This document shows positions 3,905 through 19,991 of a stretch of DNA of 20,350 bases, one piece after another (positions within the stretch are counted from its first letter, which is position 1; the number at the start of each line of letters is the position of its first letter). The notes under the pieces are model-generated. The model was not told the DNA's origin and ran no database searches. It worked only from the letters and a program-made list of their open reading frames with translations. The DNA lies in the IMG/VR virus record IMGVR_UViG_3300046757_000164, positions 1-20,350 of that record. One strand, given 5' to 3'. This DNA is from a virus. The position numbers were made by a program, and so were the translations under genes.

Positions 3905-4998
3905 TGTAAGTCGGTCCAAGCACTGCCATTCCAAACCTGTGCTTTATTTGTAGCAGTTAAGTAAATCATCATACCTGCTGTTGGAGTAGGAATAGCTGCA
4001 TCTCTTTCTGTTGTACCTGCATAACTTGCTAATTGAGCTGCACCACCAAATACAGCGGTCTGTTGTGCATTTAATGAAAGAGCGGCTACTGTGCCTGTTA
4101 CTGGATTAGTTGTACCAAATACTATGCTTCCAGGTACTTTGCCTGATGTAGGAGTACCGTCGACAGCTACTTGGATAACAGCTACTGGTGATGGAGCATT
4201 ATCTGAATCATAACCAAAGTAGTTAATACCTAAAATTTCATCTTCGTCATTTAAGCCTGTTCTGGCTGCATGTGTACCTCTTGACTTAGTAAAAACAACT
4301 GAAGAACCTACATCGGATTCTTTAGCTGCATCAATGTCAAAAAGTGAATAACCATCATCAGCGTTTCCGTCCGTAGTAATTGCAATACCTGCTTTATTAT
4401 TACCTGTTGAGTCTAAGCCCGAAAGTCTTAAAATAGCAGTATTAACATCTTGTGTTGTAACAGTAGAGTTAACTACATTACCTAATACTCGTCCGTCTGT
4501 ACCATCAATAATTGCTGTTGAATCAGTAGCAAATAATGAACCATTTACATCACCTGTAATGTTAATGTCGTAAGTAGCACCTGATATTAAACCACCTGAC
4601 TGATCGTTTGCTGGAACAAATGATGCCCCGTCCCACTTTAATACTTGTCCTACAACAGGAGCATTAGATGCTGTATCTACGTCTGATAGTAAGTTAATTG
4701 ATTTATTAAAAAGTACAGTGGCGTCACCTGGTTGGAATTCGCTATCACTGTCGTTCCATACAAGACTTTGTCCGTCTGTTGGAGCAACAGTAGTAATATC
4801 TACATCAGTTAAATCATCAACACTTAAAGTGGAATTAGCAACGTCAACAGCAATACCACCTGTTGTAGCACCATCGCCTACATAAAGTTTTTTAGTATCT
4901 GTTGTATATATTAATTCGCCTTCAGCTGGCACCGGCAAAGCTACACCGTCTAGTGTCAATCTTTGTGCATCTGTGCCTCTTCGTAATCGCAATGCCAT
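3901..4998 (-). CDS. Phage tail-fibre-like structural protein
   Basis: This 365-aa protein begins with the module MALRLRRGTDAQRLTL, then PAEGELIYTTDTKKLYVGDG at about 24-43. That N-terminus is typical of tail fibre or tropism proteins (Mtd-N-like) in marine phages and anchors to the baseplate or fibre. The middle is rich in Gly, Ser, Thr, Asp and Asn and reads as beta-structured fibre repeats: DLTDVDITTVAPTDGQSLVW and LLSDVDTASNAPVVGQVLKW are two copies of one motif. The C-terminus (MIYLTATNKAQVWNGSAW) is a common fibre end module. The start has a GGGAG RBS and a late-type ATAAATA promoter about 36 nt upstream. Its border with a variable enzyme cassette is typical of phage host-range regions. 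Its exact position in the tail cannot be read. Confidence 0.8.
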   Translation of the reverse strand: MALRLRRGTDAQRLTLDGVALPVPAEGELIYTTDTKKLYVGDGATTGGIAVDVANSTLSVDDLTDVDITTVAPTDGQSLVWNDSDSEFQPGDATVLFNKSINLLSDVDTASNAPVVGQVLKWDGASFVPANDQSGGLISGATYDINITGDVNGSLFATDSTAIIDGTDGRVLGNVVNSTVTTQDVNTAILRLSGLDSTGNNKAGIAITTDGNADDGYSLFDIDAAKESDVGSSVVFTKSRGTHAARTGLNDEDEILGINYFGYDSDNAPSPVAVIQVAVDGTPTSGKVPGSIVFGTTNPVTGTVAALSLNAQQTAVFGGAAQLASYAGTTERDAAIPTPTAGMMIYLTATNKAQVWNGSAWTDLH

Positions 4999-6250: not shown

Positions 6251-6508
6251 GTACTTCAAATGTGGACACGCCAACATGAAATAACTTGCTTCTTTTGGAT
6301 CTTCAAATCCTACTTTAATAGTACTATTGAATCCGCGACTGTCACGTGAAACATAATATCTATTTTTCAAATTTTCAAATATCCACTTTTCAATACTACT
6401 TTCCATATTATATGAAATAGGTAAACTAAGAACTTCAAAATGCCTAGGCAAATATTGAGTGCTTCGTACCTTAAAGTAGTTTAAAGGGTTAGGCTGTTTG
6501 AGCTTCAT
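6245..6508 (-). CDS. Hypothetical phage protein, 87 aa
   Basis: The start is set at the ATG at 6508, because GGAG lies about 10 nt before it; the longer frame needs a TTG at 6526. It then overlaps the end of the VWA gene by 20 nt. The 87-aa product begins MKLKQPNPLNYFKV and includes a helix MESSIEKWIFENLKNRYYVS and a C-terminal KVGFEDPKEASYFMLACPHL. The strand-helix-strand look and the GFEDPKEA segment suggest a small alpha/beta domain. I recall similar sequences in T4-like marine phages but cannot give a function. It is translationally coupled to the VWA gene. Confidence 0.75.
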   Translation of the reverse strand: MKLKQPNPLNYFKVRSTQYLPRHFEVLSLPISYNMESSIEKWIFENLKNRYYVSRDSRGFNSTIKVGFEDPKEASYFMLACPHLKYK

Positions 6509-7796
6509 AATGAGCTGTAACTCCAAATGGGGCTAATAGTTCTTTATTGTGATTACTATGAATAATAAACACTGTATCACAGTAATCGGGATCTCCCCAG
6601 CTATCCCAAGCATAACCGTCAGTAAACATTAAAAACTTTTTAGGCGTAATGCCTTGGTCTTTCATGTATGTCCAGTTACACATAAAGTCAGTACCACCAC
6701 CGCCTAAGATTTCATATGACATTAAATCTTGGCCTTCCGCGGCAGTAAAGTCTTCTTCATTATAAACACCAGTATCAAAGCACCACAACTTAATGTTGTA
6801 ATCTTTGTACTCATCCATAATACCTTTTACTTCACCTAAAAAGTCTTCAGCCTGTGAGTTACCAATTGAACCACTCATGTCAATTGCAATACATAAGTCG
6901 ATAGTATCTTGGAAGTTCATTCCAGGCAGTATAGCACCAGTGTGCCAACCTTTACGTGAAGGACGACTAAATGTATAGTCGCTTTTAATTGTTGATTGAA
7001 TTTGCTGACGAAGCAGGTCACGCCAATTGATCTTAGGCTCTGTAAGCTCTTTGATCATACGTTCGACACCTTTAGGAACATTACCAGCACCTGCACTCTG
7101 TGCGGCTGTTACCATGTTCTCTTTTATTTCGTCACGTATCTTTTTAAGTTCGTCTTTAGTGTAAGTAGGCTTCTTGCCTTCTTTACCTTCACCGTCATCT
7201 TTGCCGTCCTTACCAGATGAAGCACCTTCGTCACCATCACCGTCAGTCCAGTCAATATGCTCGTCTAGTAATTCGCCTAATGCGTTAAGTTGATCTTCGT
7301 CATACTTTTCAAACAAGTCATCATAAACTTCTTCTGAAGTCCAATCTTCGTATTTAAAGTCTTGGTAACAGTCAACGATTCTAGGCTTAGTACCAATGCT
7401 GTCTCTTACAAGAATGTTGTTTACAATGTAGTCTTGTGCAATATTAGACAGCATAGCATCTAAGTTGCGTCCTTGCCAAGTTCTACGTTCTAAGTGATCA
7501 AATACACAATGTAAAATTTCGTGTGCAATAACAAACTCAATTTCTTTATTGTCCATTGCATTAAAGAACTGAGTGTTAAAAAATAAGTTTCTGCCATCTA
7601 CGGCTGCTGTAGGACACCAGTCGTCTGCGGCTTGAATTTTAAGGCGTGTTGCCATATTACCAAAGAAAGGGTGCTTAAGAAGAAGTCCTACCCGTGCAAC
7701 AATAATACGATCAAGTACTTCTTCACGCATTACTTTAAGTTCGGATTCAGTAATGTCTGGATTAGGTGCCCAGTTCTTTTTACCTTCTACGCTCAT
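6489..7796 (-). CDS. Zincin-like plus von Willebrand A protein, MoxR partner
   Basis: This 435-aa protein resembles the DUF2201 family: a putative metallopeptidase domain followed by a VWA-like domain. The zinc motif HEXXH is intact at 92-96, within AHEILHCVFDH, with D100 and H101 as possible third ligands. A low-complexity acidic-to-basic linker covers about 185-212. The VWA domain starts near 299 with the MIDAS motif DMSGS (D306, S308, S310), then GGGGTDF with T369 and FTDGYA with D393, so all MIDAS elements are present. Proteins of this kind act with MoxR-type AAA+ ATPases as chaperone or metal-insertion pairs (the RavA-ViaA and CoxD/CoxE type), and a MoxR gene lies directly upstream. It has its own strong sigma70-type promoter. 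Whether the protease site is active is unknown. Confidence 0.85.
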   Translation of the reverse strand: MSVEGKKNWAPNPDITESELKVMREEVLDRIIVARVGLLLKHPFFGNMATRLKIQAADDWCPTAAVDGRNLFFNTQFFNAMDNKEIEFVIAHEILHCVFDHLERRTWQGRNLDAMLSNIAQDYIVNNILVRDSIGTKPRIVDCYQDFKYEDWTSEEVYDDLFEKYDEDQLNALGELLDEHIDWTDGDGDEGASSGKDGKDDGEGKEGKKPTYTKDELKKIRDEIKENMVTAAQSAGAGNVPKGVERMIKELTEPKINWRDLLRQQIQSTIKSDYTFSRPSRKGWHTGAILPGMNFQDTIDLCIAIDMSGSIGNSQAEDFLGEVKGIMDEYKDYNIKLWCFDTGVYNEEDFTAAEGQDLMSYEILGGGGTDFMCNWTYMKDQGITPKKFLMFTDGYAWDSWGDPDYCDTVFIIHSNHNKELLAPFGVTAHYEAQTA

Positions 7797-7826
7797 GTGC
7801 TATGTCCTTTCTAAGTTTATGTTTAT

Positions 7827-7855
7827 ATTATACAAGTATTTACGGAGTTTGTCAA
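7827..7855 (-). promoter_or_regulatory. Sigma70-type promoter of the VWA gene
   Basis: On the minus strand there is a perfect -35 TTGACA (7850-7855), a 17-nt spacer and a perfect -10 TATAAT (7827-7832). Transcription would start near 7820, giving a leader of about 24 nt with an AAAGGA RBS before the ATG at 7796. It lies just after the MoxR terminator, so the VWA gene is independently transcribed. Confidence 0.85.
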
Positions 7856-7857
7856 CC

Positions 7858-7894
7858 AAAAAAAGGAAAGGGCGAGCATTATACCCGCCCTTTC
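7858..7894 (-). terminator. Rho-independent terminator after MoxR gene
   Basis: On the minus strand, 5 nt after the MoxR stop, a 9-bp perfect stem (GAAAGGGCG with CGCCCTTTC; arms 7886-7894 and 7866-7874) has an 11-nt loop. One C later a run of seven T follows (7858-7864). This is a classic intrinsic terminator, the only clear one seen in the window. The loop happens to contain TATAAT. Confidence 0.88.
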
Positions 7895-7899
7895 TATTC

Positions 7900-8988
7900 T
7901 TACGAACCCTGTGCAGCCTTAATATACTTACCATAACGTTCATGGAATTCATCAAAGCATTCCACAGCATCCGGATCAATGGGTAATGAATACTGAGTAA
8001 GTGCGAGCTTAATGCCCATTACAACTAATTCAGTATCAAAGTTATCCATCGAAAATCGCAGGAAGTTATTAACCTTCTTATCGAAGTCTTTATCGTTTTT
8101 GTTATCAGCTTCTTGTAGCTCATAACACAATGACACAGTGAGGGAATACATAGCACTGATTTCTTTACTGGCCATCTCCATGACTTTTCCTGCGAGGATG
8201 TCACTTGGATTAGGCATCTGAGACGCAACCTTACGGTGCGCCATAAACTTGACAGCCAAGCCTTCTCCAACTGACCCACTAACTAAGTCTGTAGTAGTGG
8301 TTTCATCTAAGCCGTCTTCAAGCAATTCGCTTACAAACGACCAAGAACGAGGTGTTGCAAATGAACGACTTGCACTTCTTGGATCGAAGTCATATAAGTC
8401 TTTCTTTGCAAATGTTAAGTAACCAACAACGTCTGCATGTTGGTTGTTTACAACAGCCCACTGGAACCAGTCATCAAATGATACAGCAAGTTCTAAGTGG
8501 ATAAAACGGTTTGCTAACGGAGCAGGCATTCTATAAGTAACACCTTTGTCAGCTTCACGGTTACCAGCCGCAATAATTACAACATTGTCTGGCAACTTAT
8601 ATTGCCCAACTCTGCGATTAAGAATCAGCTGATATGCAGCCGCTTGTACAGCAGGTGCCGCTGAGTTCATTTCGTCTAAGAATAAAACGACATAGTCGTA
8701 TTGTGATGCAAATTCTTCTGTAGGAAGTTCTGCTGGTGCGCCCCAAACCATTGTACCTGAGTTGCTATCAAAGTACGGAATACCTTTAATGTCTGTAGGC
8801 TCCCAAAGCGACAAACGAATGTCGATCAAATTCGAGTTACCAAGGTCGTCGGTAATTTGTCTAACAATATCAGACTTACCAATGCCTGGAGGACCCCAAA
8901 GGAAGATCGGACGATTCTTGCGAATAGCATGTTTAATGCTAGATTTTGCGCCGTTGGGCGAAACTGTTCTTGTGATTACGTTTTCCAT
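7900..8988 (-). CDS. MoxR-type AAA+ ATPase
   Basis: This 362-aa ATPase has Walker A GPPGIGKS at 32-39, Walker B VVLFLDEM at 100-107, sensor 1 IIAAGN at 138-143 and a PLANRF segment with R161 as a likely Arg finger or sensor. The spacing and the GKGVTYRMPAPLANRF-like region (here starting ADKGVTYRM at 147) match MoxR/RavA-type AAA+ proteins. These form hexamers and act with VWA proteins to remodel or load metals into target complexes. The VWA partner is the next gene downstream, behind a terminator and its own promoter. The operon is a single gene behind a strong sigma70-type promoter. The target in phage infection is unknown. Confidence 0.9.
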   Translation of the reverse strand: MENVITRTVSPNGAKSSIKHAIRKNRPIFLWGPPGIGKSDIVRQITDDLGNSNLIDIRLSLWEPTDIKGIPYFDSNSGTMVWGAPAELPTEEFASQYDYVVLFLDEMNSAAPAVQAAAYQLILNRRVGQYKLPDNVVIIAAGNREADKGVTYRMPAPLANRFIHLELAVSFDDWFQWAVVNNQHADVVGYLTFAKKDLYDFDPRSASRSFATPRSWSFVSELLEDGLDETTTTDLVSGSVGEGLAVKFMAHRKVASQMPNPSDILAGKVMEMASKEISAMYSLTVSLCYELQEADNKNDKDFDKKVNNFLRFSMDNFDTELVVMGIKLALTQYSLPIDPDAVECFDEFHERYGKYIKAAQGS

Positions 8989-12055: not shown

Positions 12056-12940
12056 CTAGGTTCCCCATGCGTTACCGAATAAGTCGATGTGTAATCGTGG
12101 TGTGAATCGCCATCCTTTTTCCATACAGAGCTCAGCCACTTCTTGAATGTTGAGCTTGTATTCTTCACTGCGTCCACCCAATGGCATACAATATACCGGA
12201 CATTGTATCCCGGCGTCTCTATAACTCGCCACAGCTCTACCAGCTTCTTCGACATCAGTTTCATCAGCGACAACAAACTTAAAGTAAAGGTTACTATTAG
12301 CAACACTGTAATACTCACTAGCAATATCAGGCATAATAGCATCCTCCCAGCGTTCTCCGCTAACTGAAAGTTTTGGGGAACAACTCCAAGTGACTTCAAA
12401 TCTATCTTGATTGTTGAGATAGTCTCTAAAGTCTGGTCGTAGCTTTTGCGTAGTATTCGTTTCAAATGTAACATTTTTTAAATCCTTCATACGCGGGTGT
12501 TCTAATAATTCAGCATAGAATCTTTGCCACCCTAACAAAGGTTCTCCGCCGGTAAAAATCAAGTGAACATCTTGTCCACTATCCATTGTCCACTTACCTT
12601 CTGGAGTAAGTGATAACAAATGTTCTACAACTTCATCTACAGTTCTATCCATCATAAACTTTTTAAACTCTGGATAGATACTAGCATATGTATCACAACC
12701 TGTATGTATTACAGGTAAGTCTGTAAATTTTTCAACAGTGCTTATAATATTACTATCAAGTAACTTCTTAACTTCTGGATTATGTTTTACACCATCTGCT
12801 CTTGCAGGTGTGCCTCTTTCTAATCCAAAGTTCATGCAACGAAAGTTACAACCGAATGTACGTAAGAACACACTAGGTACTCCTACAAACTTGCCTTCTC
12901 CTTGTACGCTATAAAACGCTTCTGAATATCTAAGTTTCAT
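12056..12940 (-). CDS. queE: QueE-like 7-carboxy-7-deazaguanine synthase
   Basis: This 294-aa radical SAM protein fits QueE, which converts carboxytetrahydropterin to 7-carboxy-7-deazaguanine. It opens with the QueE-type sequence RYSEAFYSVQGEGKFVGVPS, then FLRTFGCNFRC, and has TGGEPLLGW near 130-138. The cluster motif is unusual: C31 and C35 are present, but the third position of CX3CX2C is F38. C82 (HTGCDTYAS) is the likely third ligand, 46 residues later. I recall this variant in phage QueE-like proteins. Length exceeds the usual 200-245 aa because of this insertion. It lies 3 nt after folE in the same operon, which supports the pathway. Enzyme activity needs test because of the altered motif. 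Confidence 0.85.
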   Translation of the reverse strand: MKLRYSEAFYSVQGEGKFVGVPSVFLRTFGCNFRCMNFGLERGTPARADGVKHNPEVKKLLDSNIISTVEKFTDLPVIHTGCDTYASIYPEFKKFMMDRTVDEVVEHLLSLTPEGKWTMDSGQDVHLIFTGGEPLLGWQRFYAELLEHPRMKDLKNVTFETNTTQKLRPDFRDYLNNQDRFEVTWSCSPKLSVSGERWEDAIMPDIASEYYSVANSNLYFKFVVADETDVEEAGRAVASYRDAGIQCPVYCMPLGGRSEEYKLNIQEVAELCMEKGWRFTPRLHIDLFGNAWGT

Positions 12941-12943
12941 ACT

Positions 12944-13633
12944 CTACTTCCCACATGCAAATTCTTGTTGGAGTTTAATATTATCCATAAACTCTTTCTT
13001 TGTACCTGCGTCATCCTTAAACGCACCTTTTAGTACAGTTGTTTGTGTAAGACTACTGTGTGCCTTAACACCTCTGTTCTCAACACAACCGTGTGTTGCT
13101 TGTACATAAACACCTAAGTGTTCTGCACCTGTTGCTTTCTGTATTTCACGTACAATGTCATTTGCAAGTTCTTCTTGTAGTGTACCTCGCATAGCACACC
13201 ATTGTGCAATACGTGTATACTTGCTTAACCCAATTAACTTGTCTGATGCAATAATACCAATGTATGCTACACCTCTAACTATCTGGTGATGATGTGAACA
13301 CATACTTGTAAGTTCACTACGCACAACTAACATACCTTCATAACGATCATCGCTATCATTTGGAAATGCTGTTGCAGGCGGCATTGGTTCATAACGTCCT
13401 GCCATTAGTTCATTGATATACATCTTTGCAAGACGTTTACCTGTACCGTTACTGTTAGGATCGTTTTCTGTATCTATTACAAGACCTTGTAATACGTCTT
13501 CAAACTTAACAGCAAGCTCGTCAATTAGTACTTGCTTTTCGCCGTCTTTAATAAAGTCTGAAATGTTGTCGCCGGCCCAGAAGCGTTTGTCTGCTTGTTG
13601 CAAACGGGCTTTTATCTCTTTGGATTTATCCAT
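12944..13633 (-). CDS. folE: GTP cyclohydrolase I (FolE)
   Basis: This 229-aa protein matches type I GTP cyclohydrolases, which turn GTP into 7,8-dihydroneopterin triphosphate, the entry step to folate and 7-deazaguanine compounds. Family length is about 190-222 aa. Zinc ligands are visible: C112 and H115 in MCSHHHQIV and C183 in HGCVENRGV. The intervening GLSKYTRIAQWCAMRG and LQEEL segments are the typical core, and DTENDPNSNGTGKRLAKMYI matches the family's DTPxRTPxRVAKM region. It is the first gene of an operon with queE, behind a perfect sigma70-type promoter, and has a GGAG RBS. In a phage its product more likely feeds deazaguanine synthesis than folate, given queE next to it. Confidence 0.95.
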   Translation of the reverse strand: MDKSKEIKARLQQADKRFWAGDNISDFIKDGEKQVLIDELAVKFEDVLQGLVIDTENDPNSNGTGKRLAKMYINELMAGRYEPMPPATAFPNDSDDRYEGMLVVRSELTSMCSHHHQIVRGVAYIGIIASDKLIGLSKYTRIAQWCAMRGTLQEELANDIVREIQKATGAEHLGVYVQATHGCVENRGVKAHSSLTQTTVLKGAFKDDAGTKKEFMDNIKLQQEFACGK

Positions 13634-13698
13634 TTTTTTAATCTCCGATGTTTAGGCAGTGGATTGCCGTTAATAATACAATGCACAATATAACTTAT

Positions 13699-13727
13699 AT
13701 TATACATTGTATTTAGGTTTTTGTCAA
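13699..13727 (-). promoter_or_regulatory. Sigma70-type promoter of the folE-queE operon
   Basis: The minus strand shows TTGACA (13722-13727), a 17-nt spacer and TATAAT (13699-13704), both perfect. The -35 starts 5 nt after the stop of the preceding gene. The leader of about 59 nt contains only a weak 4-bp hairpin (GGCA/TGCC) and a CGGAG RBS. I see no preQ1 riboswitch in it. Confidence 0.85.
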
Positions 13728-13732
13728 GTATA

Positions 13733-13939
13733 TTAAACAAAATATGTGTTTAACATATCAAGACGATCATGTGCTGTAGACATAGCATCTAGTTCTTTCT
13801 GAATTGTTTCTACAATATCAGAATGCTCGCCAATACCTACAACCTTTTGCATGTATACTTCAATGTTAGTCTTATGCAATTCTATCTCCGCTTCAGCGTG
13901 TAGTCTTGCCGCTTTAATCATTTGTTCCTTCAAGTCCAT
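13733..13939 (-). CDS. Small helical phage protein, 68 aa
   Basis: The 68-aa product is predicted almost wholly helical, with heptad-like segments (MDLKEQMIKAARLHAEAEIE, then DIVETIQKELDAMSTAHDRL). It could be a small coiled-coil protein. No family is recognised. It has a strong AAGGAAAGGA RBS and is the last gene of the nine-gene operon that starts at the QueD-like gene. Confidence 0.75.
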   Translation of the reverse strand: MDLKEQMIKAARLHAEAEIELHKTNIEVYMQKVVGIGEHSDIVETIQKELDAMSTAHDRLDMLNTYFV

Positions 13940-13950
13940 AGTTCCTTTCC

Positions 13951-14325
13951 TTAGTATTTTTGTTTAGATGGAATGACGCCTCTTACGCCACCTTTCGGAT
14001 CTTCCATGTCTCCATCACGACGGAAGATTAAATGTACATGTGGATACATAACTGTTTGTCCTGCACTTACACCTATATTTAGACCAATATTATAACCTGT
14101 TACATTATTCTTGGTTGTTGTAACATTATCATTGCCCATTGACATAGCAAACTTAAAACATTTTTCTACACAATCCATAACATTTACTTTGGGTACTACT
14201 AACAAATGTCCTTCAGTTACAGGATACTTGTCTTCGTATACTACAAAGTCTCTAGTATCTAAGTATACGTTATCCCATGGTGCTCTGCCTTCTTGCTGAG
14301 CTTGTTCTAATGTATCAAGCGTCAT
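13951..14325 (-). CDS. HIT-family nucleotide-binding protein
   Basis: This 124-aa protein fits the histidine triad family of nucleotide hydrolases or transferases. The core GLNIGVSAGQTVMYPHVHLI (81-100) corresponds to the HxHxHxx motif, with the middle catalytic His as H96 and the third as H98. The first His of the triad is Tyr (Y94). The C-terminal DPKGGVRGVIPSKQKY is typical of bacterial and phage FHIT-like proteins. HIT proteins act on AMP-lysine, Ap4A-like or nucleoside phosphoramidate substrates; in a phage it may clear nucleotide by-products. The ATG overlaps the phosphoribosyltransferase gene by 11 nt. It lies in the same operon as the QueD-like gene. Confidence 0.85.
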   Translation of the reverse strand: MTLDTLEQAQQEGRAPWDNVYLDTRDFVVYEDKYPVTEGHLLVVPKVNVMDCVEKCFKFAMSMGNDNVTTTKNNVTGYNIGLNIGVSAGQTVMYPHVHLIFRRDGDMEDPKGGVRGVIPSKQKY

Positions 14326-14872
14326 ACTTACCTACTATTTCCCAAGGGTAAACTAACCAAACATCTTCTTCTGCTTTGTTAACTTCGTGTGCTGAATAAT
14401 TAACACCTTCGAACTCACTTGCAAGGTTTTCAGTTAGTGTAGCAAATCTTACATTTTTATTCCATACAGTACCCCAAGTGCTTTCATTGGGTAAACAACT
14501 AGCTGGCCAATCTTTTTTGATCCAATTAAGTGTTGCACCTGTATCGTTAATATCGTCTACAATTAAAATATTTTTACGTCTGTTAACGTCCCAACGACTT
14601 TTAGTTACAGCACGTTCTTCTTCTGGTACGTAACCAAATGCATCTTCAGCCATCCAAGAATTAGATTCACAATCTGTTTCGTCATCACGTAAACTTACTT
14701 TTAATGCTTCGCAACGAACTCCTAACATATGCGATAATATTGTAGCAGGAACATTACCACCTCGTGTAATACCTATAATATAGTCAGGCTTCCAGTTGTC
14801 TTTTTGCATCTGCATTGCAATATCAATACACATTTTTTCAATGTGTCCCCAAGTGTAATAATGTTTGTTCAT
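14315..14872 (-). CDS. Purine-type phosphoribosyltransferase
   Basis: This 185-aa protein carries the PRPP-binding signature ILIVDDINDTGAT at 102-114, and an upstream loop GITRGGNVPA at 34-43 as in type I phosphoribosyltransferases. The C-terminal VWLVYPWE resembles the end of xanthine/guanine phosphoribosyltransferase (Gpt). Such enzymes join a purine base to PRPP to give a nucleotide. Here it may salvage guanine or, by context, handle a 7-deazaguanine base; the latter is inference. An insertion rich in Asp/Glu at about 62-90 varies within the family. The ATG overlaps the preceding gene's stop by 4 nt and has an AAAGGA RBS. Base specificity cannot be read from the sequence. Confidence 0.85.
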   Translation of the reverse strand: MNKHYYTWGHIEKMCIDIAMQMQKDNWKPDYIIGITRGGNVPATILSHMLGVRCEALKVSLRDDETDCESNSWMAEDAFGYVPEEERAVTKSRWDVNRRKNILIVDDINDTGATLNWIKKDWPASCLPNESTWGTVWNKNVRFATLTENLASEFEGVNYSAHEVNKAEEDVWLVYPWEIVGKYDA

Positions 14873-15138
14873 TTATTATTCCTTTTGTATTCGTCGAGAA
14901 GTGCGTCTCCACTAAGTTCCTTACCAAAGATTCGTACAGTGTTATCTTTTAGTGTGCGTCTTATTACACCATTGTTATATTCAACATCCATTACCATACC
15001 CATGTCGGTATCTTCAGGATTAGTGTCATACCACATACTTTTTAAACTATGAAAGTGTAAACTTTTTACACCCTTTGCCCATGTCTCTGCTTCTAACAAA
15101 TCTCGTTGCCTTTCTACTACGTCATTATACTGACTCAT
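14869..15138 (-). CDS. Hypothetical phage protein, 89 aa
   Basis: The product of 89 aa has a helical N-terminus (VVERQRDLLEAETWAKGVKS), then a mixed segment with MVMDVEYNNGVIRRTLKDNT and an acidic end. No family is recognised. The RBS (AAGGAG) lies in the end of the cupin gene, with a 3-nt gap. The stop overlaps the phosphoribosyltransferase start as ATGA. Confidence 0.75.
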   Translation of the reverse strand: MSQYNDVVERQRDLLEAETWAKGVKSLHFHSLKSMWYDTNPEDTDMGMVMDVEYNNGVIRRTLKDNTVRIFGKELSGDALLDEYKRNNK

Positions 15139-15141
15139 AAA

Positions 15142-15606
15142 TTACTCCTTAGCGAGGTAGTCTACGCTATTTTGCCATCTATAACCAATGCCTTGTACAA
15201 AAGGTACAAAGCCCCATTCTTTTGCTTTTTTGCCCATATAGAATAAACTCCAACATGGTATTTCATTACCGTCTTTGTCTTTTTCTAAAGTCAAAAAATG
15301 TAAGTCATTTGACTTACGAAATCTAAAGTGTCCTGGCCCACGCCAGATACCACGTGATCCTACTATGTTACCTTCTTTACTAACAATAGGAACATTCTCC
15401 CAATAACCACCTTTAAGTATAAGTGTTGCGTAACTCCAAGGATGGTCATGTAATGTTGCTTCGTCACTTTTTAAAACTTTGTGCAAAGTGACATTGAACG
15501 GAAAGTTCTTTCTGTCCTTTAGGAACAAGTACCAACGAACCAAGTAAGGCTCGTTACTATCTCTATCTTTAATTACACGTTTACGACCTTTTAAAAAACC
15601 AAACAT
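15142..15606 (-). CDS. Cupin-fold protein
   Basis: This 154-aa protein has the HDH cupin-type motif in ATLHDHPWSYATLILKGGYW (50-69) with H53, H55 and E70 as likely metal ligands, and a later H103 in DLHFLTLE as the second-motif ligand. This suggests a single cupin domain that binds a metal, as in small dioxygenases, isomerases or binding proteins. H42 is a further candidate. The substrate is not known. Its ATG overlaps the previous stop by 1 nt, with AAGGA as RBS. It sits between a structural-looking unknown and the phosphoribosyltransferase in the QueD-like operon. Confidence 0.75.
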   Translation of the reverse strand: MFGFLKGRKRVIKDRDSNEPYLVRWYLFLKDRKNFPFNVTLHKVLKSDEATLHDHPWSYATLILKGGYWENVPIVSKEGNIVGSRGIWRGPGHFRFRKSNDLHFLTLEKDKDGNEIPCWSLFYMGKKAKEWGFVPFVQGIGYRWQNSVDYLAKE

Positions 15607-15956
15607 TATGCTGAGTCCTTTAGAGTTTCGAACGTTTCGATCTTTGCTAGTTCACGTTCATATGCTTCTGCGGCACGTTTTAAGCCTTTGTACTTTTCTT
15701 CTTTTTCAAGATCTCTACTAACTACACCTAGTACAAGTTGCAAATCTTTAATAGATTGCATAACGTCTACGCCATCTACTTCTAGTTTACCTTCAACAGA
15801 AAGACCGTATTTTCCGTCCAAAGCATCTGTAAATGTAAAAGTATCATTAGTATATATAGATGAAGGACTAGTAGTAAAACTATCGTCCCAATTACTAGTA
15901 TCTATTGTAATAGTATCATCACTACTGTAATTATACGTATAAGTATTATCGCTCAT
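15606..15956 (-). CDS. Hypothetical phage protein, 116 aa
   Basis: The start is placed at 15956, where the ATG (MSDNTYTYNYSSDDTIT) has a GAAAGG RBS and overlaps the glycosyltransferase end by 11 nt; the longer frame upstream is a shadow of that gene. The N-terminal 45 residues are Thr, Ser, Asp and Tyr rich, low in charge and likely beta or disordered. A conserved-looking KYGLSVEGKLEVDGVDVMQS follows, then a helical, charged C-terminus (DLEKEEKYKGLKRAAEAYER) that may be coiled coil. The layout suggests a virion-associated protein. No family is known. Confidence 0.75.
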   Translation of the reverse strand: MSDNTYTYNYSSDDTITIDTSNWDDSFTTSPSSIYTNDTFTFTDALDGKYGLSVEGKLEVDGVDVMQSIKDLQLVLGVVSRDLEKEEKYKGLKRAAEAYERELAKIETFETLKDSA

Positions 15957-17007
15957 CTTTAAGCCTTTCATATAATGCACTACCACTAAAAAAGTCTTTG
16001 TTAAGTATCTTACGTTGTTTTTCCAAACTAACCAAATAGTCGGAATAATTTTCCATGTAGTCGCGTATCTTTGTAACAACTTCGCCTCTATGCTTTCTAT
16101 ATGCTGTATAGTCTTCAGTCCATTTGCTAGGATATAAAAACTCTTGCACGGACATTTCACTATAGCTCAGTCTATCTGGTACCATAGGAATAGCATCAAC
16201 TAATGCACCTTCGTACCAACTAATACCTAGTGTTTCTTGTAGGTTAGCACTAAACACAAGTTTAGCTTCGCCTAACAAGTTATGATATTCATTCTTTGTA
16301 AGATCACGTTCTTGACATACAACAAACTCGTATTCGGGTAGTTGTTGTGCTAAGTCGTGAAATATATCAACTTGTTTTTCAGGAGCAACTCTGTGTGGGA
16401 AAAGTATAAGGTTACGTTTTTCCATACCTTTATAACTATCCAAACTATTCTTTAGATACTCCATAGGCCAGCCTACTCGATGTATTTTATCATTGTCAAT
16501 TTGATAATCTTCACCTAGTGTATCTGTAAACATATCAATATGAAAGTCAGTTGCAAAGAAGTTATCATCATAACATTCAAACATTGACATTTCAGCATGT
16601 CTTACCCAAGGCTTATCTCCTATAAGTCTACCTAGGAAATCTTGAGGATCATAAGACCCTGCATGCCACAAACCGCCAATACAAACATCAACGCCTAGTA
16701 GTTCTGCCATGTAACGAAGTTGTATAACAGTAGGGTTCCAAGCGTCAGTGTATAAGAAGTAATCACCATCTTTAACAGCACCATTACAAAACATTTCTCC
16801 TATTTGCTCGAGCTGTTTTGACTTGTATACATTAGTACCGCCGAAGTTGAGGAACGCCCCAGGCGTAGTTGCCTGAGGTGTATCCCCGCCACTAATAACA
16901 TTTATCTTTTCATTTGTAGACTTCAACAGTTGACGTGGAAGATAATCTTTCCACTGCTTAGTATAGCGTGTGTCTACGGCTTCAATATCTACAATATGAA
17001 TAGTCAT
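15946..17007 (-). CDS. GT-B (GT4-like) glycosyltransferase
   Basis: This 353-aa protein looks like a GT-B fold glycosyltransferase related to family 4. The donor-binding C-terminal half has NLILFPHRVAPEKQVDIF (199-216), where R206 and K211 are typical donor-phosphate contacts, then the EX7E motif with E258 and E266 in LQETLGISWYEGAL, followed by DAIPMVPDRLSYSEM. The N-terminal half holds HAGSYDPQDF near 115. Such enzymes transfer sugars from nucleotide donors. The gene lies in the operon led by the QueD-like gene, so glycosylation of modified phage DNA is possible, though a glycan or tail protein acceptor is equally open. It overlaps both neighbours (TAATG and the 11-nt overlap). Confidence 0.8.
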   Translation of the reverse strand: MTIHIVDIEAVDTRYTKQWKDYLPRQLLKSTNEKINVISGGDTPQATTPGAFLNFGGTNVYKSKQLEQIGEMFCNGAVKDGDYFLYTDAWNPTVIQLRYMAELLGVDVCIGGLWHAGSYDPQDFLGRLIGDKPWVRHAEMSMFECYDDNFFATDFHIDMFTDTLGEDYQIDNDKIHRVGWPMEYLKNSLDSYKGMEKRNLILFPHRVAPEKQVDIFHDLAQQLPEYEFVVCQERDLTKNEYHNLLGEAKLVFSANLQETLGISWYEGALVDAIPMVPDRLSYSEMSVQEFLYPSKWTEDYTAYRKHRGEVVTKIRDYMENYSDYLVSLEKQRKILNKDFFSGSALYERLKDER

Positions 17008-17240
17008 TAGTTTCTCCGTTTGTGATTAAAGTTCTTACCTGAAGAGCGGTTCTTTGCCTTAAGGTGGTTAACATGACGCTGATATGAGCGCCACACATAA
17101 GATCGTTCGTTATACAAATCTTTCTCATTGTATACGAACGCCACGTTTTTAGCATCGCCAACGTAGCGACAGAAGTCTTTAAAATTTTCCAAGTCTCGGA
17201 AAATTTTGTCGTAAGCGGGCTTATTAAACTTGATTGCCAT
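17007..17240 (-). CDS. Small basic phage protein, 77 aa
   Basis: This 77-aa product is basic, with helices KPAYDKIFRDLENFKDFCRY and ERSYVWRSYQRHVNHLKAKN and a C-terminal SSGKNFNHKRRN tail. The charge suggests nucleic acid binding. No family is recognised. Its RBS is AGAGGA. It is the second gene of the QueD-like operon and its stop overlaps the glycosyltransferase ATG by 1 nt. A longer competing frame (16982-17266) is a shadow. Confidence 0.75.
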   Translation of the reverse strand: MAIKFNKPAYDKIFRDLENFKDFCRYVGDAKNVAFVYNEKDLYNERSYVWRSYQRHVNHLKAKNRSSGKNFNHKRRN

Positions 17241-17267
17241 TTTTTAATATCCTCTATTAATAGCACT

Positions 17268-17681
17268 TTAATTTTTAGGGTTTGGGTAATAAATTACACA
17301 GCCGTTTTCGTTGTCTTCAGCGACACTAATCTCTACAAATCGGCCGGGGAACTTTGTAGAAATTTCTTTATATAAATCATCTGCGATCATCTCACAAGAC
17401 TTATAATCTAGAACGAGCACTTCACCGTCGGAAGAAGCACTATAGAGTCTTTCCATCCATCTTTTGAATTGGATGAACTCGATGTCTCTATCGTTGTGGA
17501 ACACTTCGATACGCACCCTGAAGTGGAAAATATGACGATGAGGCACAGCAAGAAACGACACATCGTCCCAATCGCCTGTTGCAAGTTTTGGATCACTATC
17601 TGCTCCTGGATACTTATGGATGCCTTCTTTAGTAAAAGTTACCCATATACTTCTAGTAGCATTATTTATTGGATCATTCAT
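17268..17681 (-). CDS. queD: QueD/PTPS-like T-fold protein
   Basis: I place the start at ATG 17681, giving 137 aa, because AGAGAGGA lies just before it; the upstream ATG 17738 coincides with the expected transcription start. The protein resembles QueD, which converts dihydroneopterin triphosphate to carboxytetrahydropterin. A likely zinc triad is H22 (GIHKYP), H48 and H50 (PHRHIFHF). The IEFIQFKRWM stretch matches the family's MVxDFxxLK helix region and AEDNENG the late Glu (E122) segment. The canonical Cys and Asp-His catalytic pair are not visible, so this is a diverged member. FolE and QueE nearby support the pathway assignment. It starts a nine-gene operon behind a strong promoter. Confidence 0.6.
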   Translation of the reverse strand: MNDPINNATRSIWVTFTKEGIHKYPGADSDPKLATGDWDDVSFLAVPHRHIFHFRVRIEVFHNDRDIEFIQFKRWMERLYSASSDGEVLVLDYKSCEMIADDLYKEISTKFPGRFVEISVAEDNENGCVIYYPNPKN

Positions 17682-17744
17682 CTTTTTATTTTCCTCTCTT
17701 GTTCTGCGTAGCATGTAATCGTAATAACGTTCTTGCATTGTTAT

Positions 17745-17773
17745 AGTATACTTTCATTACAATGGTTTGTCAA
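17745..17773 (-). promoter_or_regulatory. Sigma70-type promoter of the QueD-like operon
   Basis: The minus strand has TTGACA (17768-17773), a 17-nt spacer and TATACT (17745-17750). The -35 lies inside the last codons of the 172-aa gene. The expected transcript start near 17738 leaves a leader of about 57 nt before the ATG at 17681. Confidence 0.8.
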
Positions 17774-18275
17774 GCGAATATTTTGTCCAATCCGTAAACT
17801 TTTCGCTATCCATTAAATCGTGGAGTCTATGACACCACACACCTGGATTGGTTGCTTTAAAATCTTTGTCATCGATTTTAATCATTGTATTGTAATTCCA
17901 CTGTTTAACATAAGGAACTACTACACGTATTTGTGGAATAAAGTAATCTGTTTCAACAAGGCCGCCATCTAAGAACCATTCCATATTAATTGTACTTGGT
18001 ATGTCCAAACTACATAATATTTCCTGATCAGTAAATGCACGTATCATTAGATCCCAGTCTTCAAAGTCATCTGAAGTTACAGGATTATAACTATGATTAG
18101 CACCAAAGAAGATATGTTCACACTGTTCATCTGTATAGTGTTTCATTATTGTATTATAGTCTTGTTTGCCTGTAACAAACAATGTTTTCATTCCTAATGC
18201 AGGAGTCTTTTCAACTTCTACACCTGTAAAGAATGTAATACTATCTGCTATGCCTGTATCATAATCTCTTTTCAT
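17757..18275 (-). CDS. Hypothetical protein linked to the DpdA-like gene, 172 aa
   Basis: The family is not recognised. The 172-aa product reads as an alpha/beta protein: ITFFTGVEVEKTPALGMKTL near 14-33, EHIFFGANHSYNP near 53-65, and a Cys/His-containing NPGVWCHRLHDLMDSEKFTDW in the C-terminal part. The FFTGVEVEKTPALG and FFGANHSYNP segments look like active-site or ligand loops. It starts with an ATGA overlap on the DUF465-like gene, downstream of the DpdA-like gene, and carries the next promoter's -35 in its 3' end. Its location makes it a candidate base-modification or accessory protein, by context only. Confidence 0.75.
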   Translation of the reverse strand: MKRDYDTGIADSITFFTGVEVEKTPALGMKTLFVTGKQDYNTIMKHYTDEQCEHIFFGANHSYNPVTSDDFEDWDLMIRAFTDQEILCSLDIPSTINMEWFLDGGLVETDYFIPQIRVVVPYVKQWNYNTMIKIDDKDFKATNPGVWCHRLHDLMDSEKFTDWTKYSLDKPL

Positions 18276-18472
18276 ATTGTTTTTAACCTTGTTTCTAATC
18301 TGTGGATTTCGTCTTTATACCAAAGTTTTTTTGTTTTAAGCCTGTTAATAGAACTATCACTTGCAAAAGTATTATACATTAATTTTATTTCTTCGTCAAG
18401 TTTTCTATGCTTCTTATATAGCTCTTGTAAATAGCCTGCAATTTTATTGTGTTCATCTGTGAAGTTGCTCAT
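18272..18472 (-). CDS. DUF465/YdcH-like coiled-coil protein
   Basis: The ATG at 18472 gives 66 aa and has AGAGGA about 8 nt before it; a TTG at 18478 is the alternative. The pattern KKHRKLDEEIKLMYNTF, then INRLKTKKLWYKDEIHRLE, matches the YdcH/DUF465 layout of a short helical hairpin with a conserved HRxLDxEI and LKKxKLxLKDEI pair. Cellular members are about 70 aa and of unknown role. It overlaps the DpdA-like gene by 20 nt, so expression is coupled. Confidence 0.75.
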   Translation of the reverse strand: MSNFTDEHNKIAGYLQELYKKHRKLDEEIKLMYNTFASDSSINRLKTKKLWYKDEIHRLETRLKTI

Positions 18473-19991
18473 CCTCAAGATCCTCTAATTTCGTTTCATC
18501 TAGATCTTCTTCGTCTGTAATTACAGGTTCACCTACTTCTTCAAATAAGTTTCCAAAGTATGTACTACTGTTTACAGTCTTTTTACCAATCGCTCCTCTT
18601 GTACCAGGTATGGTCATCCAAAAGCGACTATAGTGTTCAATTATTGCGTTGGCTTCTTCTCTGCCGTTAGCCGCAAATATTGCTTCCACAACGTCTCTAA
18701 ATAAAATCCTGTCAAATTGTTCTTGTACAAGCATCTTAGGAAGTATGCCTGCATCGTATTGTCTGTTTGCTTCTTGTACAGCATTAATATGACTCCATAC
18801 ATTATGACCCATTTGGATAGCATATGAAAAACTATCCCATGACGTCTTTCCTTCTTTACCAATCTTGTTTAACATTCCTGGTGCATAATGACATACATCA
18901 TTTACTTTAAGGTCTTTTGTAATTGGACTATTAGTAAAGTTTTTAAATATGTTATCTTGTAGTACAGCGTCTTTAAACAGTCTAGTATCTGCAGCATACT
19001 TTTTATCATCAATACTAGGAACCATTCTATAGACCCATTTAGTTCTATCTTCAGTTTCAGTTTGAATATAAATTTGTCCGTTTGCTGTTGCTAAGAAAGG
19101 TGAAGCACAATCAAATGTAATCATAAAGTTTGGGTTATGATACTTACGAACAGCTCTTTGTATGTCTGTTAGTAACGTAGCCCATTCTAGTTTAGATGTG
19201 CCTAAGAAGTGCATTACATCGTGTACACCTGTTTGTAGTAGGTCATCATATATCAATGCAACTATACGTTTAAGAACCAAATGCACATCGCACATGTTCT
19301 GTCCACCCATTGACCAACCATTAAAATGATTGTCTGGATACACTTTAGGATCACAGTAATCTTTCATTTGCTCGTACCAGTCATCTGCGTCTGCATGATT
19401 CTCACCCTGCAAAACGTTTAAGAACTTACAAGCACCTGTTCTGTGTTTCATCCAATAGTCATTGTTAATGCGTGTTGCTTTGACTGCTTCATCATATGTG
19501 CTAATGCCAGTTGCTTTAGCACCTGCTTCTGAACGTGCTACCCAGGCTGGAATATCAAGTACCATGCCATAGTCCATATAAGCGTCCATCCAACGAAGAA
19601 CTCCGTCACGTTTCTTTTGTGCTTTAGGACAATTAGGATCTTTCCAATCACCTTCCCAAACACCTTTACCAATTTGGAAACCACCTGAGTCGCCTAGTAG
19701 CCAAGTGTTTTCTCTATCTCTGTTTCGAACCATGTCTTCTTTAGGTACTTCTTTAGTAGTATCTAAGTCCGCATGTCCTGCTGAATACAGTGTCCATTTA
19801 TATGTAAACGCACCTTCGTTTTTATTTAGATAGTTTAAACTCTCAACACCATTTGCAAAGTTGCTTGGAATACGTGCTTTGTCTACGTATTCATCAAAAC
19901 GTTGTTTACCTACATATGTAGCATAAAAGCCACTAAGTGCAGGTAAAAATGTTGCATAATCATTTTGTGTTGCGGTTAAATCTTTGTTCAT
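18453..19991 (-). CDS. dpdA: TGT-paralogue transglycosylase (DpdA type)
   Basis: This 512-aa protein matches tRNA-guanine transglycosylase motifs in order. DSGGFQ (101-106) is the base-binding loop, LDIPAW with D146 fits the second guanine-binding Asp, LQGENH has Q195-G196, FNGWSMGG (223-230) is the GG loop, and TFDCASPF has D294 at the nucleophile position. The tRNA-TGT zinc site is not seen: only C367 is near the expected region, with H396 and H401. Length exceeds the bacterial TGT 370-380 aa, and the extra 100 C-terminal residues end acidic. Such zinc-poor TGT paralogues in phages with FolE/QueD/QueE genes are DpdA, which insert 7-deazaguanine bases into DNA. A tRNA role is the alternative. 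It follows two membrane-protein genes in the same operon. Confidence 0.8.
   Translation of the reverse strand: MNKDLTATQNDYATFLPALSGFYATYVGKQRFDEYVDKARIPSNFANGVESLNYLNKNEGAFTYKWTLYSAGHADLDTTKEVPKEDMVRNRDRENTWLLGDSGGFQIGKGVWEGDWKDPNCPKAQKKRDGVLRWMDAYMDYGMVLDIPAWVARSEAGAKATGISTYDEAVKATRINNDYWMKHRTGACKFLNVLQGENHADADDWYEQMKDYCDPKVYPDNHFNGWSMGGQNMCDVHLVLKRIVALIYDDLLQTGVHDVMHFLGTSKLEWATLLTDIQRAVRKYHNPNFMITFDCASPFLATANGQIYIQTETEDRTKWVYRMVPSIDDKKYAADTRLFKDAVLQDNIFKNFTNSPITKDLKVNDVCHYAPGMLNKIGKEGKTSWDSFSYAIQMGHNVWSHINAVQEANRQYDAGILPKMLVQEQFDRILFRDVVEAIFAANGREEANAIIEHYSRFWMTIPGTRGAIGKKTVNSSTYFGNLFEEVGEPVITDEEDLDETKLEDLEDEQLHR

What the first reader, a model, noticed from the sequence alone, without database searches (positions are those of the whole stretch)
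12056..19991. 7-deazaguanine DNA modification pathway across three operons, without QueC
FolE (12944), QueE-like (12056), a QueD-like protein (17268) and a zinc-poor TGT paralogue of DpdA type (18453) occur within 8 kb. Together these are known to make 7-deazaguanine precursors and insert them into phage DNA in place of guanine, protecting it from restriction. QueC, which makes preQ0, is not seen here, so the final base may be 7-carboxy-7-deazaguanine, a derivative made elsewhere in the genome, or need host QueC.
Basis: partly seen in the sequence, partly recalled or inferred. Interest (0 to 1): 0.85.

Follow-up and report, generated by a model that had tools for sequence, protein, structure and literature searches.

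The report
QueC-free deazaguanine DNA-modification gene cluster
A widespread group of phages, known mainly from metagenomes, carries a gene set that probably swaps guanine in their DNA for a guanine look-alike, made without the usual QueC enzyme and perhaps then decorated with a sugar, which could hide the DNA from bacterial defences.

Summary
The four genes exist, all on the minus strand: FolE 12944-13633, QueE 12056-12940, a QueD-fold protein (P0003) 17268-17738 and a DpdA/TGT-fold protein 18453-19991. The window is a 20-kb contig fragment, so missing QueC alone means little.

One gene was misread. P0003 is not QueD: it lacks QueD's catalytic Cys and Asp-His, and a QueD-family protein lies elsewhere in 10 of 11 cultured P0003 phages (9 with intact motifs) and 4 of 14 related contigs. 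P0003 instead replaces QueC: QueC passes its cut-off in 1 of 11 P0003 phages against 12 of 12 chosen QueE phages without P0003 (Fisher p about 1e-5). It probably processes the QueE product CDG, best guess by decarboxylation to 7-deazaguanine.

The module is larger than reported. A GT4-type glycosyltransferase is in 35 of 35 related viral loci with room. Among P0003 phages it is in the same 5 of 11 that have a recognised DpdA; it is absent from 4 of 4 DpdA phages without P0003. A phosphoribosyltransferase is in 28 of 28 loci.

Verdict: real, a new variant of phage 7-deazaguanine DNA modification. Boldest reading: glycosylated 7-deazaguanine in DNA. No DNA was measured.

The parts
18453..19991 (-). 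DpdA-type guanine transglycosylase (512 aa), divergent family shared with PA5oct, Phosso and, over part of its length, Vibrio phage 2.275.O
   Evidence: Motifs DSGGFQ / LQGEN / GWSMGGQ / HFLG / FDCASP; D101 and D294 invariant in 30 of 30 (their match to the TGT catalytic aspartates is recalled); Foldseek top hits TGT, fifth DpdA 7ui4, VIA Z 13.9 to TGT 6h62 and 12.3 to DpdA 7ui4, on a low-confidence model (mean pLDDT 51.8); no CxCxxC in 30 of 30; relatives
18272..18478 (-). small conserved ORF next to dpdA, unknown
   Evidence: tblastn match in 76 of 85 loci searched, of which 80 are dpdA loci
17757..18275 (-). conserved protein of unknown function (A7 family)
   Evidence: 52 of 52 loci with room; homologues in PA5oct group (40-41%) and ACP17 (29%); no Pfam hit
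17268..17738 (-). P0003: QueD-fold protein without the QueD active site; proposed CDG-processing enzyme in QueC's place
   Evidence: AlphaFold mean pLDDT 86.2; VIA Z 11.4 to E. coli QueD 4ntk, 12.1 to PTPS 2dj6; H41, H67, H69, H81, R84, E87, S114-C115-E116 and E141 invariant in 31 of 31; 46 of 46 loci with room; phrog_17812 1.6e-30
17007..17240 (-). small conserved ORF between P0003 and the glycosyltransferase, unknown
   Evidence: tblastn match in 69 of 85 loci searched
15946..17007 (-). GT4-type glycosyltransferase (353 aa), proposed tailoring enzyme
   Evidence: QETLGISWYEG (E-x7-E) and R205/K210; R205, E209, K210, E265 invariant in 36 of 36; Pfam Glycos_transf_1 in 11 of 36 members, best 8e-12, but not in the window member itself; 35 of 35 loci with room
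15606..16160 (-). conserved ORF, unknown, start uncertain (listed ORF overlaps the GT gene)
   Evidence: tblastn match in 50 of 85 loci searched
15142..15606 (-). protein matching a PHROG called 'cysteine dioxygenase', optional member
   Evidence: PHROG 4786 2.8e-31; 20 of 30 loci with room
14315..14872 (-). phosphoribosyltransferase, xanthine/guanine type; proposed salvage of the guanine freed by base exchange
   Evidence: Pfam Pribosyltran 9.4e-13; NCBIfam xanthine PRT 1.3e-13, below cut-off; 28 of 28 loci with room
13951..14325 (-). HIT-family protein
   Evidence: Pfam HIT 1.8e-08; 23 of 28 loci with room
12944..13633 (-). FolE, GTP cyclohydrolase I
   Evidence: Pfam 1.2e-36; C112, H115, C183 (positions) spaced as the zinc ligands of E. 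coli FolE (recalled); 27 of 28 loci with room
12056..12940 (-). QueE, 7-carboxy-7-deazaguanine synthase, with a phage-type insertion between cluster Cys 2 and 3
   Evidence: PHROG 2076 1.1e-50; C31, C35, C82 in 43 of 43; same architecture in nt-1 QueE

Best explanation
This is a phage 7-deazaguanine DNA-modification module of a QueC-free kind. FolE and a QueD supplied elsewhere in the phage genome or by the host feed QueE, which makes 7-carboxy-7-deazaguanine (CDG). P0003, a QueD-fold protein without QueD's nucleophilic Cys but with the His motifs and a conserved Glu, then acts on CDG where other phages use QueC; the most likely chemistry is decarboxylation to plain 7-deazaguanine. The divergent DpdA exchanges guanine in phage DNA for that base through its conserved aspartates, and the phosphoribosyltransferase recycles the guanine set free. 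The neighbouring GT4 glycosyltransferase probably tailors the P0003-derived base. The purpose is most likely to hide phage DNA from restriction. Shown here: genes, folds, conserved residues, linkage and the exchange of QueC for P0003. Inferred: the reaction of P0003, the sugar step, insertion into DNA, guanine salvage and the protective role.
For: Gene identities. TGT/DpdA fold and conserved Asp pair. P0003 has the QueD fold but no Cys ahead of its HxH pair and no [F/I/W]DH motif, whereas 14 of 14 single-length QueDs taken from the same genomes have both. Separate QueD-family protein over cut-off in 10 of 11 cultured P0003 phages (9 with intact motifs) and in 4 of the 14 longest related contigs. 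QueC over cut-off in 1 of 11 P0003 phages against 12 of 12 comparison QueE phages; P0003 in 0 of those 12 apart from one weak partial match at E 0.0099; Fisher p 9.6e-6. Module order dpdA - 17757 protein - P0003 - GT - PRT - FolE conserved and shared in part with PA5oct. Vibrio phage 2.275.O carries a partial relative of this DpdA in a cluster with an annotated preQ0 reductase and a QueC, and no P0003, the expected pattern if P0003 replaces QueC.
Against: No activity or DNA mass was measured. The DpdA model is poor (pLDDT 51.8), and profile comparison with other phage DpdAs aligned the motifs in order but with low probability (1.6%). Six of 11 P0003 phages have no DpdA that either profile or Pfam TGT can see. 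One P0003 phage (D479) has a partial QueC-family match over cut-off and only a weak QueD match; Ahp1's QueD match is an odd double-length protein. One related contig (G006) has a PP-loop protein that passes the QueC cut-off (19.2 bits, 22.9 with its neighbours in the frame). QueD was not found in 10 of 14 related contigs, including the two closest to the window (L004, L005; partial contigs), so for the window's own phage it is assumed. The 12 comparison phages were picked by me for lineage spread, and pf16 was already annotated with QueC before the test. Plain 7-deazaguanine offers no obvious hydroxyl or amine for a glycosyltransferase, which sits badly with decarboxylation being the last step.
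Confidence: 0.62

Rival explanations
1. P0003 is a working if divergent QueD, the missing QueC is supplied by the host, and the final base is dPreQ0 or similar.
For: QueD fold; some phages may rely on host enzymes (statement in PMC6884629, section read); no other QueD seen in the window or in its two closest longer contigs.
Against: Catalytic Cys and Asp-His missing in P0003; a separate QueD-family protein in 10 of 11 P0003 phages and 4 of 14 contigs; P0003 near-exclusive with QueC.
Confidence: 0.07
2. CDG itself is inserted by DpdA (dCDG in DNA) and P0003 and the GT modify it afterwards on the DNA, for example as a glycosyl ester of the carboxylate.
For: No QueC over cut-off in 13 of 14 related contigs and 10 of 11 P0003 phages; the carboxylate would give the glycosyltransferase a handle; QueF-Like, which I recall acts on tRNA-bound substrate, shares the fold (Z 9.7).
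Against: P0003 also occurs in 6 of 11 phages with no GT, so it does something that does not need the GT.
Confidence: 0.15
3. The base enters DNA through nucleotides (PRT makes the nucleotide, the polymerase inserts it), with DpdA acting on tRNA or as a side enzyme.
For: PRT in 28 of 28 loci; in tubercidin synthesis TubE joins PRPP to CDG (passages of PMC6112128); six P0003 phages have no recognised DpdA.
Against: Intact Asp pair and the linkage of DpdA to the other genes in this group; the PRT is closest to xanthine/guanine PRTs.
Confidence: 0.08
4. The glycosyltransferase belongs to another pathway (another base, or the virion surface) and is only a neighbour.
For: Glycosyltransferases are common in phages (general knowledge); thymidylate-synthase family proteins, whose relatives make hydroxymethylated pyrimidines (recalled), are in 6 of 10 records tested; one GT relative (PhiXhv-12) is in a phage without P0003.
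Against: GT is 35 of 35 in the viral group with room, in 5 of 5 P0003 phages with a recognised DpdA and 0 of 6 without, and near P0003 in 18 of 24 genome loci; three of those five GT phages have no thymidylate-synthase family match.
Confidence: 0.3

Closest known systems
Phage 7-deazaguanine DNA modification (FolE-QueD-QueE-QueC-DpdA; phages 9g, CAjan, Rosebush, nt-1), Hutinet 2019 (PMC6884629: abstract, introduction, part of the results and the discussion read)
   Same: FolE, QueE and a TGT-fold DpdA in one cluster; QueE with the cysteine architecture of nt-1
   Different: No QueC; P0003 in its place; a different, very divergent DpdA; a constant GT4 neighbour and PRT
Cui et al. 2023, NAR 51:9214 (not held; existence seen in reference lists; contents recalled): dCDG, dDG, DpdL (CDG decarboxylase), DpdA3 and DpdA4
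   Same: If DpdL is the P0003 family, which I could not check, the decarboxylation step is already predicted there
   Different: I recall no glycosyltransferase or sugar-bearing deazaguanine in it; subfamily membership of this DpdA not testable here
PA5oct group (Arenbergviridae) deazaguanine system, noted in Iyer 2021 (PMC7824862, one passage)
   Same: dpdA, GT, P0003, PRT-like gene, QueE and exonuclease in one stretch; P0003 61%, GT 45%, DpdA 37% identical
   Different: GT and P0003 in swapped order; the 17757-type protein and QueD elsewhere in the genome; that passage names no GT or P0003
Huimycin cluster (PMC7439116, passages)
   Same: A glycosyltransferase (HuiG) encoded with FolE/QueD/QueE/QueC homologues is assigned the attachment of N-acetylglucosamine to a 7-deazaguanine-type base
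   Different: Makes a free nucleoside antibiotic and uses a QueC homologue (HuiB); no DpdA mentioned in the passages seen; similarity of HuiG to the phage GT not tested
Tubercidin cluster (PMC6112128, passages)
   Same: CDG, joined to PRPP by TubE, is proposed to be decarboxylated; a PRPP transferase in the cluster
   Different: The proposed decarboxylase TubF is UbiD-type, not QueD-fold, and acts on the nucleotide; product is an antibiotic

Membership tests
Phage 7-deazaguanine DNA modification | TGT-fold DNA transglycosylase with catalytic Asp pair | tested here: met
   D101, D294 in 30 of 30; fold matches TGT and DpdA 7ui4, on a low-confidence model; action on DNA not tested
Phage 7-deazaguanine DNA modification | FolE and QueE encoded nearby | tested here: met
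   FolE 27 of 28 loci with room; QueE matched in 36 of 85 loci, many of them too short to reach it
Phage 7-deazaguanine DNA modification | QueD (CPH4 synthase) | tested here: inconclusive
   Not seen in the 20-kb fragment; present in 4 of 14 related contigs and over cut-off in 10 of 11 cultured P0003 phages
Phage 7-deazaguanine DNA modification (preQ0 branch) | QueC or Gat-QueC | tested here: not met
   Window 0 (fragment); 1 of 14 related contigs, 19.2 bits or 22.9 with its neighbours in the frame; 1 of 11 cultured P0003 phages
Phage 7-deazaguanine DNA modification | 7-deazaguanine base in virion DNA | not testable with these tools
   needs nucleoside LC-MS
QueD (6-carboxytetrahydropterin synthase) | PTPS/QueD fold | tested here: met
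   VIA Z 11.4 to 4ntk, 2.6 A over 111 residues; Foldseek E 1.1e-4
QueD (6-carboxytetrahydropterin synthase) | Catalytic Cys (C-x3-HG[H/Y]) and Asp-His motif | tested here: not met
   Absent from the P0003 rows shown and from the invariant columns; present in 14 of 14 single-length QueDs of the same genomes; residue roles recalled
tRNA TGT | CxCxxC zinc motif and Pfam TGT match | tested here: not met
   0 of 30 with CxCxxC; no TGT match at E up to 1 in 30 members
DpdA3 / DpdL of Cui 2023 | Subfamily sequence clustering | not tested
   Paper not held; no sequences of those subfamilies identified as such
GT4 glycosyltransferase | E-x7-E and R/K donor-site motifs | tested here: met
   R205, K210, E265 invariant, E257 in at least 90% of 36; Pfam Glycos_transf_1 in 11 of 36; motif roles recalled
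GT4 glycosyltransferase | GT-B fold and sugar transfer | not tested

The most novel reading that the evidence does not exclude
The module makes a sugar-bearing 7-deazaguanine in DNA: DpdA inserts the P0003-derived base and the GT4 enzyme glycosylates it (possibly as a C-glycoside at C7, or on a group that P0003 leaves), giving a hypermodified guanine unlike the eight deazaguanines I recall as reported. Supporting pattern: among 11 P0003 phages the GT is in exactly the 5 with a recognised DpdA, of two very different DpdA types; it is in 0 of 4 DpdA phages that lack P0003 (nt-1, Moby, pf16, 2.275.O); and in the genome collection all 14 P0003 loci with this DpdA carry it. A separate lead is Xanthomonas phage PhiXhv-12, without P0003, where a GT relative follows a QueC-domain gene and a gene annotated as an N-acetylglucosaminyl malate deacetylase, as if attaching and trimming an amino sugar.
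Probability: 0.33. Interest if true: 0.85.

Novelty: new variant of a known kind. Interest (0 to 1): 0.64.

Why it matters
It offers an explanation for FolE/QueE/DpdA phages that lack QueC: a QueD-fold protein has taken QueC's place. Bulky or sugar-bearing guanines would be expected to affect restriction, CRISPR, sequencing and library bias (inference). The same dpdA-P0003-GT set on long contigs of bacteria such as Magnetospirillum aberrantis also asks whether cells use it to mark their own DNA.

Tried and rejected
Rejected: P0003 as the pathway's QueD; absence of QueC in the window as evidence by itself, since the window is a contig fragment. Sequence search of the P0003, GT and DpdA profiles against PDB chains found nothing useful. 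Pfam TGT matched none of the 11 P0003 phages, including the five whose DpdA other profiles find, so it cannot be used to say a phage lacks DpdA. Profile comparison of the window DpdA with the ACP17/X1/BUCT type gave probability 1.6% although the motifs align in order; the relation of the two types is left open. A first attempt to pull QueD ORFs by motif picked wrong frames and was redone by position. In one search the ORF chosen for L098 was a spurious frame and is not used. Promoter-like sites: total not above shuffles. The CoiA-like nuclease beside the module in Magnetospirillum is shared by only two close strains of the 25 loci. Thymidylate-synthase family proteins, as a hint of hydroxymethyl-pyrimidine acceptors for the GT, occur in 6 of 10 records and do not track the GT. 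One P0003 candidate locus of 25 (L158) gave no profile match and was dropped, leaving 24. Two QueD-related double-length proteins (L108, L109) were left out of the QueD alignment. Literature: searches; I saw no glycosylated deazaguanine in phage DNA in the titles and abstract starts listed, and the term DpdL with 7-deazaguanine is in no held paper, but the key 2023 paper and the 2024 review are not held, so this says little.


Full report
What the window is. The window is a whole virus record of 20,350 bases, a fragment. The genes that matter here lie on the minus strand, with no gap over 103 bases between the listed genes from 20.3 to 5.05 kb. The closest cultured relatives by gene content are the PA5oct group of jumbo phages: DpdA 37% over 80%, P0003 61%, GT 45%, exonuclease 50%, AAA ATPase 49%. 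These 80 are close relatives (77 to 100% identical in DpdA) and include near-duplicates, so the counts below are not independent.

The named genes. FolE is clear (Pfam 1.2e-36). QueE matches PHROG 2076 'QueE-like radical SAM domain' at 1.1e-50 and QueE models of NCBIfam below cut-off. Its cysteines are C31-x3-C35 and, after an insertion, C82; all three are kept in 43 of 43 aligned sequences. Vibrio phage nt-1 QueE has the same kind of insertion, and nt-1 DNA was reported to contain dPreQ0 (Table 2 of PMC6884629, section read), so the insertion need not harm activity. The 512-aa protein at 18453-19991 has no Pfam match, yet carries the motif series DSGGFQ, LQGEN, GWSMGGQN, HFLG, FDCASP, which I recognise as TGT-like, with D101 and D294 invariant in 30 of 30. 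A low-confidence model (mean pLDDT 51.8, pTM 0.60) still has TGTs as its four best Foldseek hits and the DNA preQ0 insertase DpdA (7ui4) as the fifth; all 50 VIA rows shown are TGT-family or DpdA entries, best Z 13.9 (6h62, 5.1 A over 301), DpdA 7ui4 Z 12.3 (4.0 A over 251). The TGT zinc motif CxCxxC is absent in 30 of 30.

P0003 is not QueD. The model of 17268-17738 is good (mean pLDDT 86.2) and is QueD/PTPS-like: Z 12.1 to 2dj6 (2.1 A over 97), Z 11.4 to E. coli QueD 4ntk (2.6 A over 111), Foldseek E 1.1e-4. But in 31 aligned members the invariant residues are H41, P44, L63, H67, H69, F71, V79, H81, R84, E87, F88, S114-C115-E116 and E141; the rows shown have no Cys four residues before the HxH pair and no Asp-His motif of the QueD kind. 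Fourteen single-length QueDs from the same genomes (four related contigs and nine cultured phages, PA5oct having two) all have C-x3-HG[Y/H] and [F/I/W]DH (their catalytic role is recalled). A QueD-family protein occurs apart from P0003 in 4 of the 14 longest related contigs and over cut-off in 10 of 11 cultured P0003 phages: nine with intact motifs, Ahp1 with an odd double-length protein, and D479 below cut-off at 16 bits. The two contigs closest to the window (L004, L005, 82 and 60 kb, 99% in DpdA) show no QueD and no QueC in what is held. The C-terminal halves of P0003 and QueD align by profile (E 3.4e-5, probability 72%), consistent with common descent.

P0003 and QueC exclude each other. 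One search found 26 phage records with P0003, in 11 apparent groups; I took one of each. QueC passes its cut-off in 1 of these 11 (D479, a partial match whose protein reads SGIDS where canonical QueC has SGGxDS; signature from a passage of PMC13329287) and is below cut-off in another (X1). In 12 QueE phages without P0003, chosen by me for lineage spread (ten from the 154 QueE records: Moby, nt-1, PhiXhv-12, GR11A, Voja-6, HVTV-2, CP220, Quesadilla, phiSM, JG054; 2.275.O; pf16), QueC passes in 12 of 12, Moby's being a partial match at 32.6 bits, and P0003 is absent apart from one partial match in Moby at E 0.0099. Fisher p is 9.6e-6; the sample is not random and lineages are few, so the number is a guide. 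Among the 14 longest contigs of the window's own group QueC passes in 1, at 19.2 bits or 22.9 with its neighbours in the frame against a cut-off of 22, without the spacing of the QueC zinc motif (L081, by eye). P0003 therefore most likely takes CDG onward in QueC's stead. The simplest product is 7-deazaguanine; I recall that Cui et al. 2023 named a CDG decarboxylase DpdL and found dDG and dCDG in phage DNA, but that paper is not held and I cannot say whether DpdL is this family.

A larger module. In the 80 viral loci, counting only those with enough sequence downstream of dpdA, the 17757-18275 protein is present in 52 of 52, P0003 in 46 of 46, the glycosyltransferase in 35 of 35, the phosphoribosyltransferase in 28 of 28, FolE in 27 of 28 (missing in L011), HIT in 23 of 28 and the 15142 protein in 20 of 30; P0003 and the GT lie on the same strand in 66 of 66 pairs. 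QueE was matched in 36 of 85 loci; no locus was long enough for the length set for QueE, so there is no denominator. The GT keeps R205, E209, K210 and E265 in 36 of 36 and E257 in at least 90%, the GT4 pattern (recalled); Pfam Glycos_transf_1 is found in 11 of 36 members, best 8e-12, though not in the window's own, and depositors called the Phosso and PAC2 relatives glycosyltransferases.

The GT goes with P0003 and DpdA together. In the 11 P0003 phages the GT profile matches 5 (PA5oct, Phosso, ACP17, X1, BUCT-ZZ01). A DpdA is recognised in the same 5 and no other: window type in PA5oct and Phosso, the nt-1/ACP17 type in ACP17, X1 and BUCT-ZZ01. The remaining 6 have neither, although an unseen DpdA type is possible because Pfam TGT misses all 11. 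Of four DpdA phages without P0003 (nt-1, Moby, pf16, 2.275.O) none has the GT. Of the 12 comparison phages one, PhiXhv-12, has a GT relative without P0003. In the genome collection, 24 confirmed P0003 loci (several from close strains, many from metagenome-assembled genomes that may hold phage contigs) include 18 with the GT and 14 with the window-type DpdA, all 14 of which have the GT. Of the 19 phage records with a GT relative at E up to 0.001, I saw a QueE in 12; the other 7 are second records or close relatives of these and were not checked; QueE is in 154 of 50,697 records at the same limit. In PhiXhv-12 the GT relative follows a QueC-domain gene annotated as an aminotransferase and a deacetylase gene, a set that would fit attaching and trimming an amino sugar. 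A precedent for sugar on a 7-deazaguanine-type base is huimycin, where HuiG is assigned that step (passages of PMC7439116).

How it probably works. FolE, a QueD from elsewhere, and QueE make CDG; P0003 removes or rebuilds the carboxylate; DpdA swaps guanine for the product; the PRT turns the freed guanine back into nucleotide; the GT decorates the base. Only the parts list, the conservation and the co-occurrence are shown. The weak link is chemical: if P0003 makes plain 7-deazaguanine, the GT would need to form a C-glycoside or use another acceptor. If P0003 instead leaves an acceptor group, the product is not dDG. LC-MS on BUCT-ZZ01, PA5oct and phiST DNA would settle it.

Known or new. The kind of system is known (PMC6884629, abstract and named sections read; PA5oct's system is mentioned in PMC7824862, one passage read). 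QueC-less phages are also known: PMC6884629 notes Mycobacterium phage Bipper and an incomplete contig. What I did not find in the searches named under Tried and rejected is the exclusivity of P0003 and QueC or the constant GT. I file it as a new variant of a known kind, with a bolder reading kept open.

Noticed in passing
window 496-3904 (+): Opposite-strand trio: TauD-family dioxygenase (Pfam 1.8e-21), a B12-binding radical SAM protein (NCBIfam KedN5-type C-methyltransferase 9e-59, below cut-off) and a 161-aa ORF without a match. Function unknown.
   Followed up: partly
window 6489-8988 (-): A DUF2201 metallopeptidase/VWA protein beside a MoxR-like AAA ATPase; PA5oct has an AAA homologue at 49% in the same stretch.
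   Followed up: partly
window 3901-4998 (-): Protein with an Mtd N-terminal domain (Pfam 7.3e-11), probably a tail or receptor-binding part.
   Followed up: no
window 17757-18275 (-): Protein of unknown family (F-x-G-x-E-x-E-x-T ... TLF ... NHS ... KxDDxxF ... NPGVW) in 52 of 52 dpdA loci with room; phage relatives found only in the PA5oct group and ACP17.
   Followed up: partly
L142, L143 (Magnetospirillum): GT-P0003-DpdA-QueD set on long bacterial contigs (424 kb and 1.4 Mb), with a CoiA-like nuclease just upstream in these two close strains. Possibly a cellular modification or defence island rather than a phage.
   Followed up: partly
L144 (Aurantimonas), L148 (Methylobacterium frigidaeris): DpdA-P0003-GT without recognised FolE/QueE in the fetched stretch; may use the host's queuosine pathway.
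   Followed up: no
L156, L157 (Streptomyces sp. NEAU-Y11): P0003 relative next to QueD and FolE, on two scaffolds with the same layout; could belong to a deazapurine antibiotic cluster.
   Followed up: no
L117 (Vibrio phage 2.275.O): A partial relative of the window's DpdA (34.5% over 43%) in a cluster with an annotated preQ0 reductase, vitamin-uptake transporter, QueC-family gene and FolE: related inserter, different base.
   Followed up: partly
L133 (Xanthomonas phage PhiXhv-12), 6911-10145: QueC-domain gene annotated as aminotransferase, then a gene annotated as N-acetyl-glucosaminyl malate deacetylase and a GT relative.
   Followed up: partly
L108, L109 (Ahp1, D479): Double-length QueD-related proteins (292 and 306 aa) with a C-x4-HGH motif in the second half instead of C-x3-HGH.
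   Followed up: no
window 13727-13699, 11572-11544, 17773-17745 (-): Perfect or near-perfect sigma-70-like sites in the gaps before folE and the exonuclease gene and just before P0003, although promoter-like sites overall are not above shuffles.
   Followed up: partly
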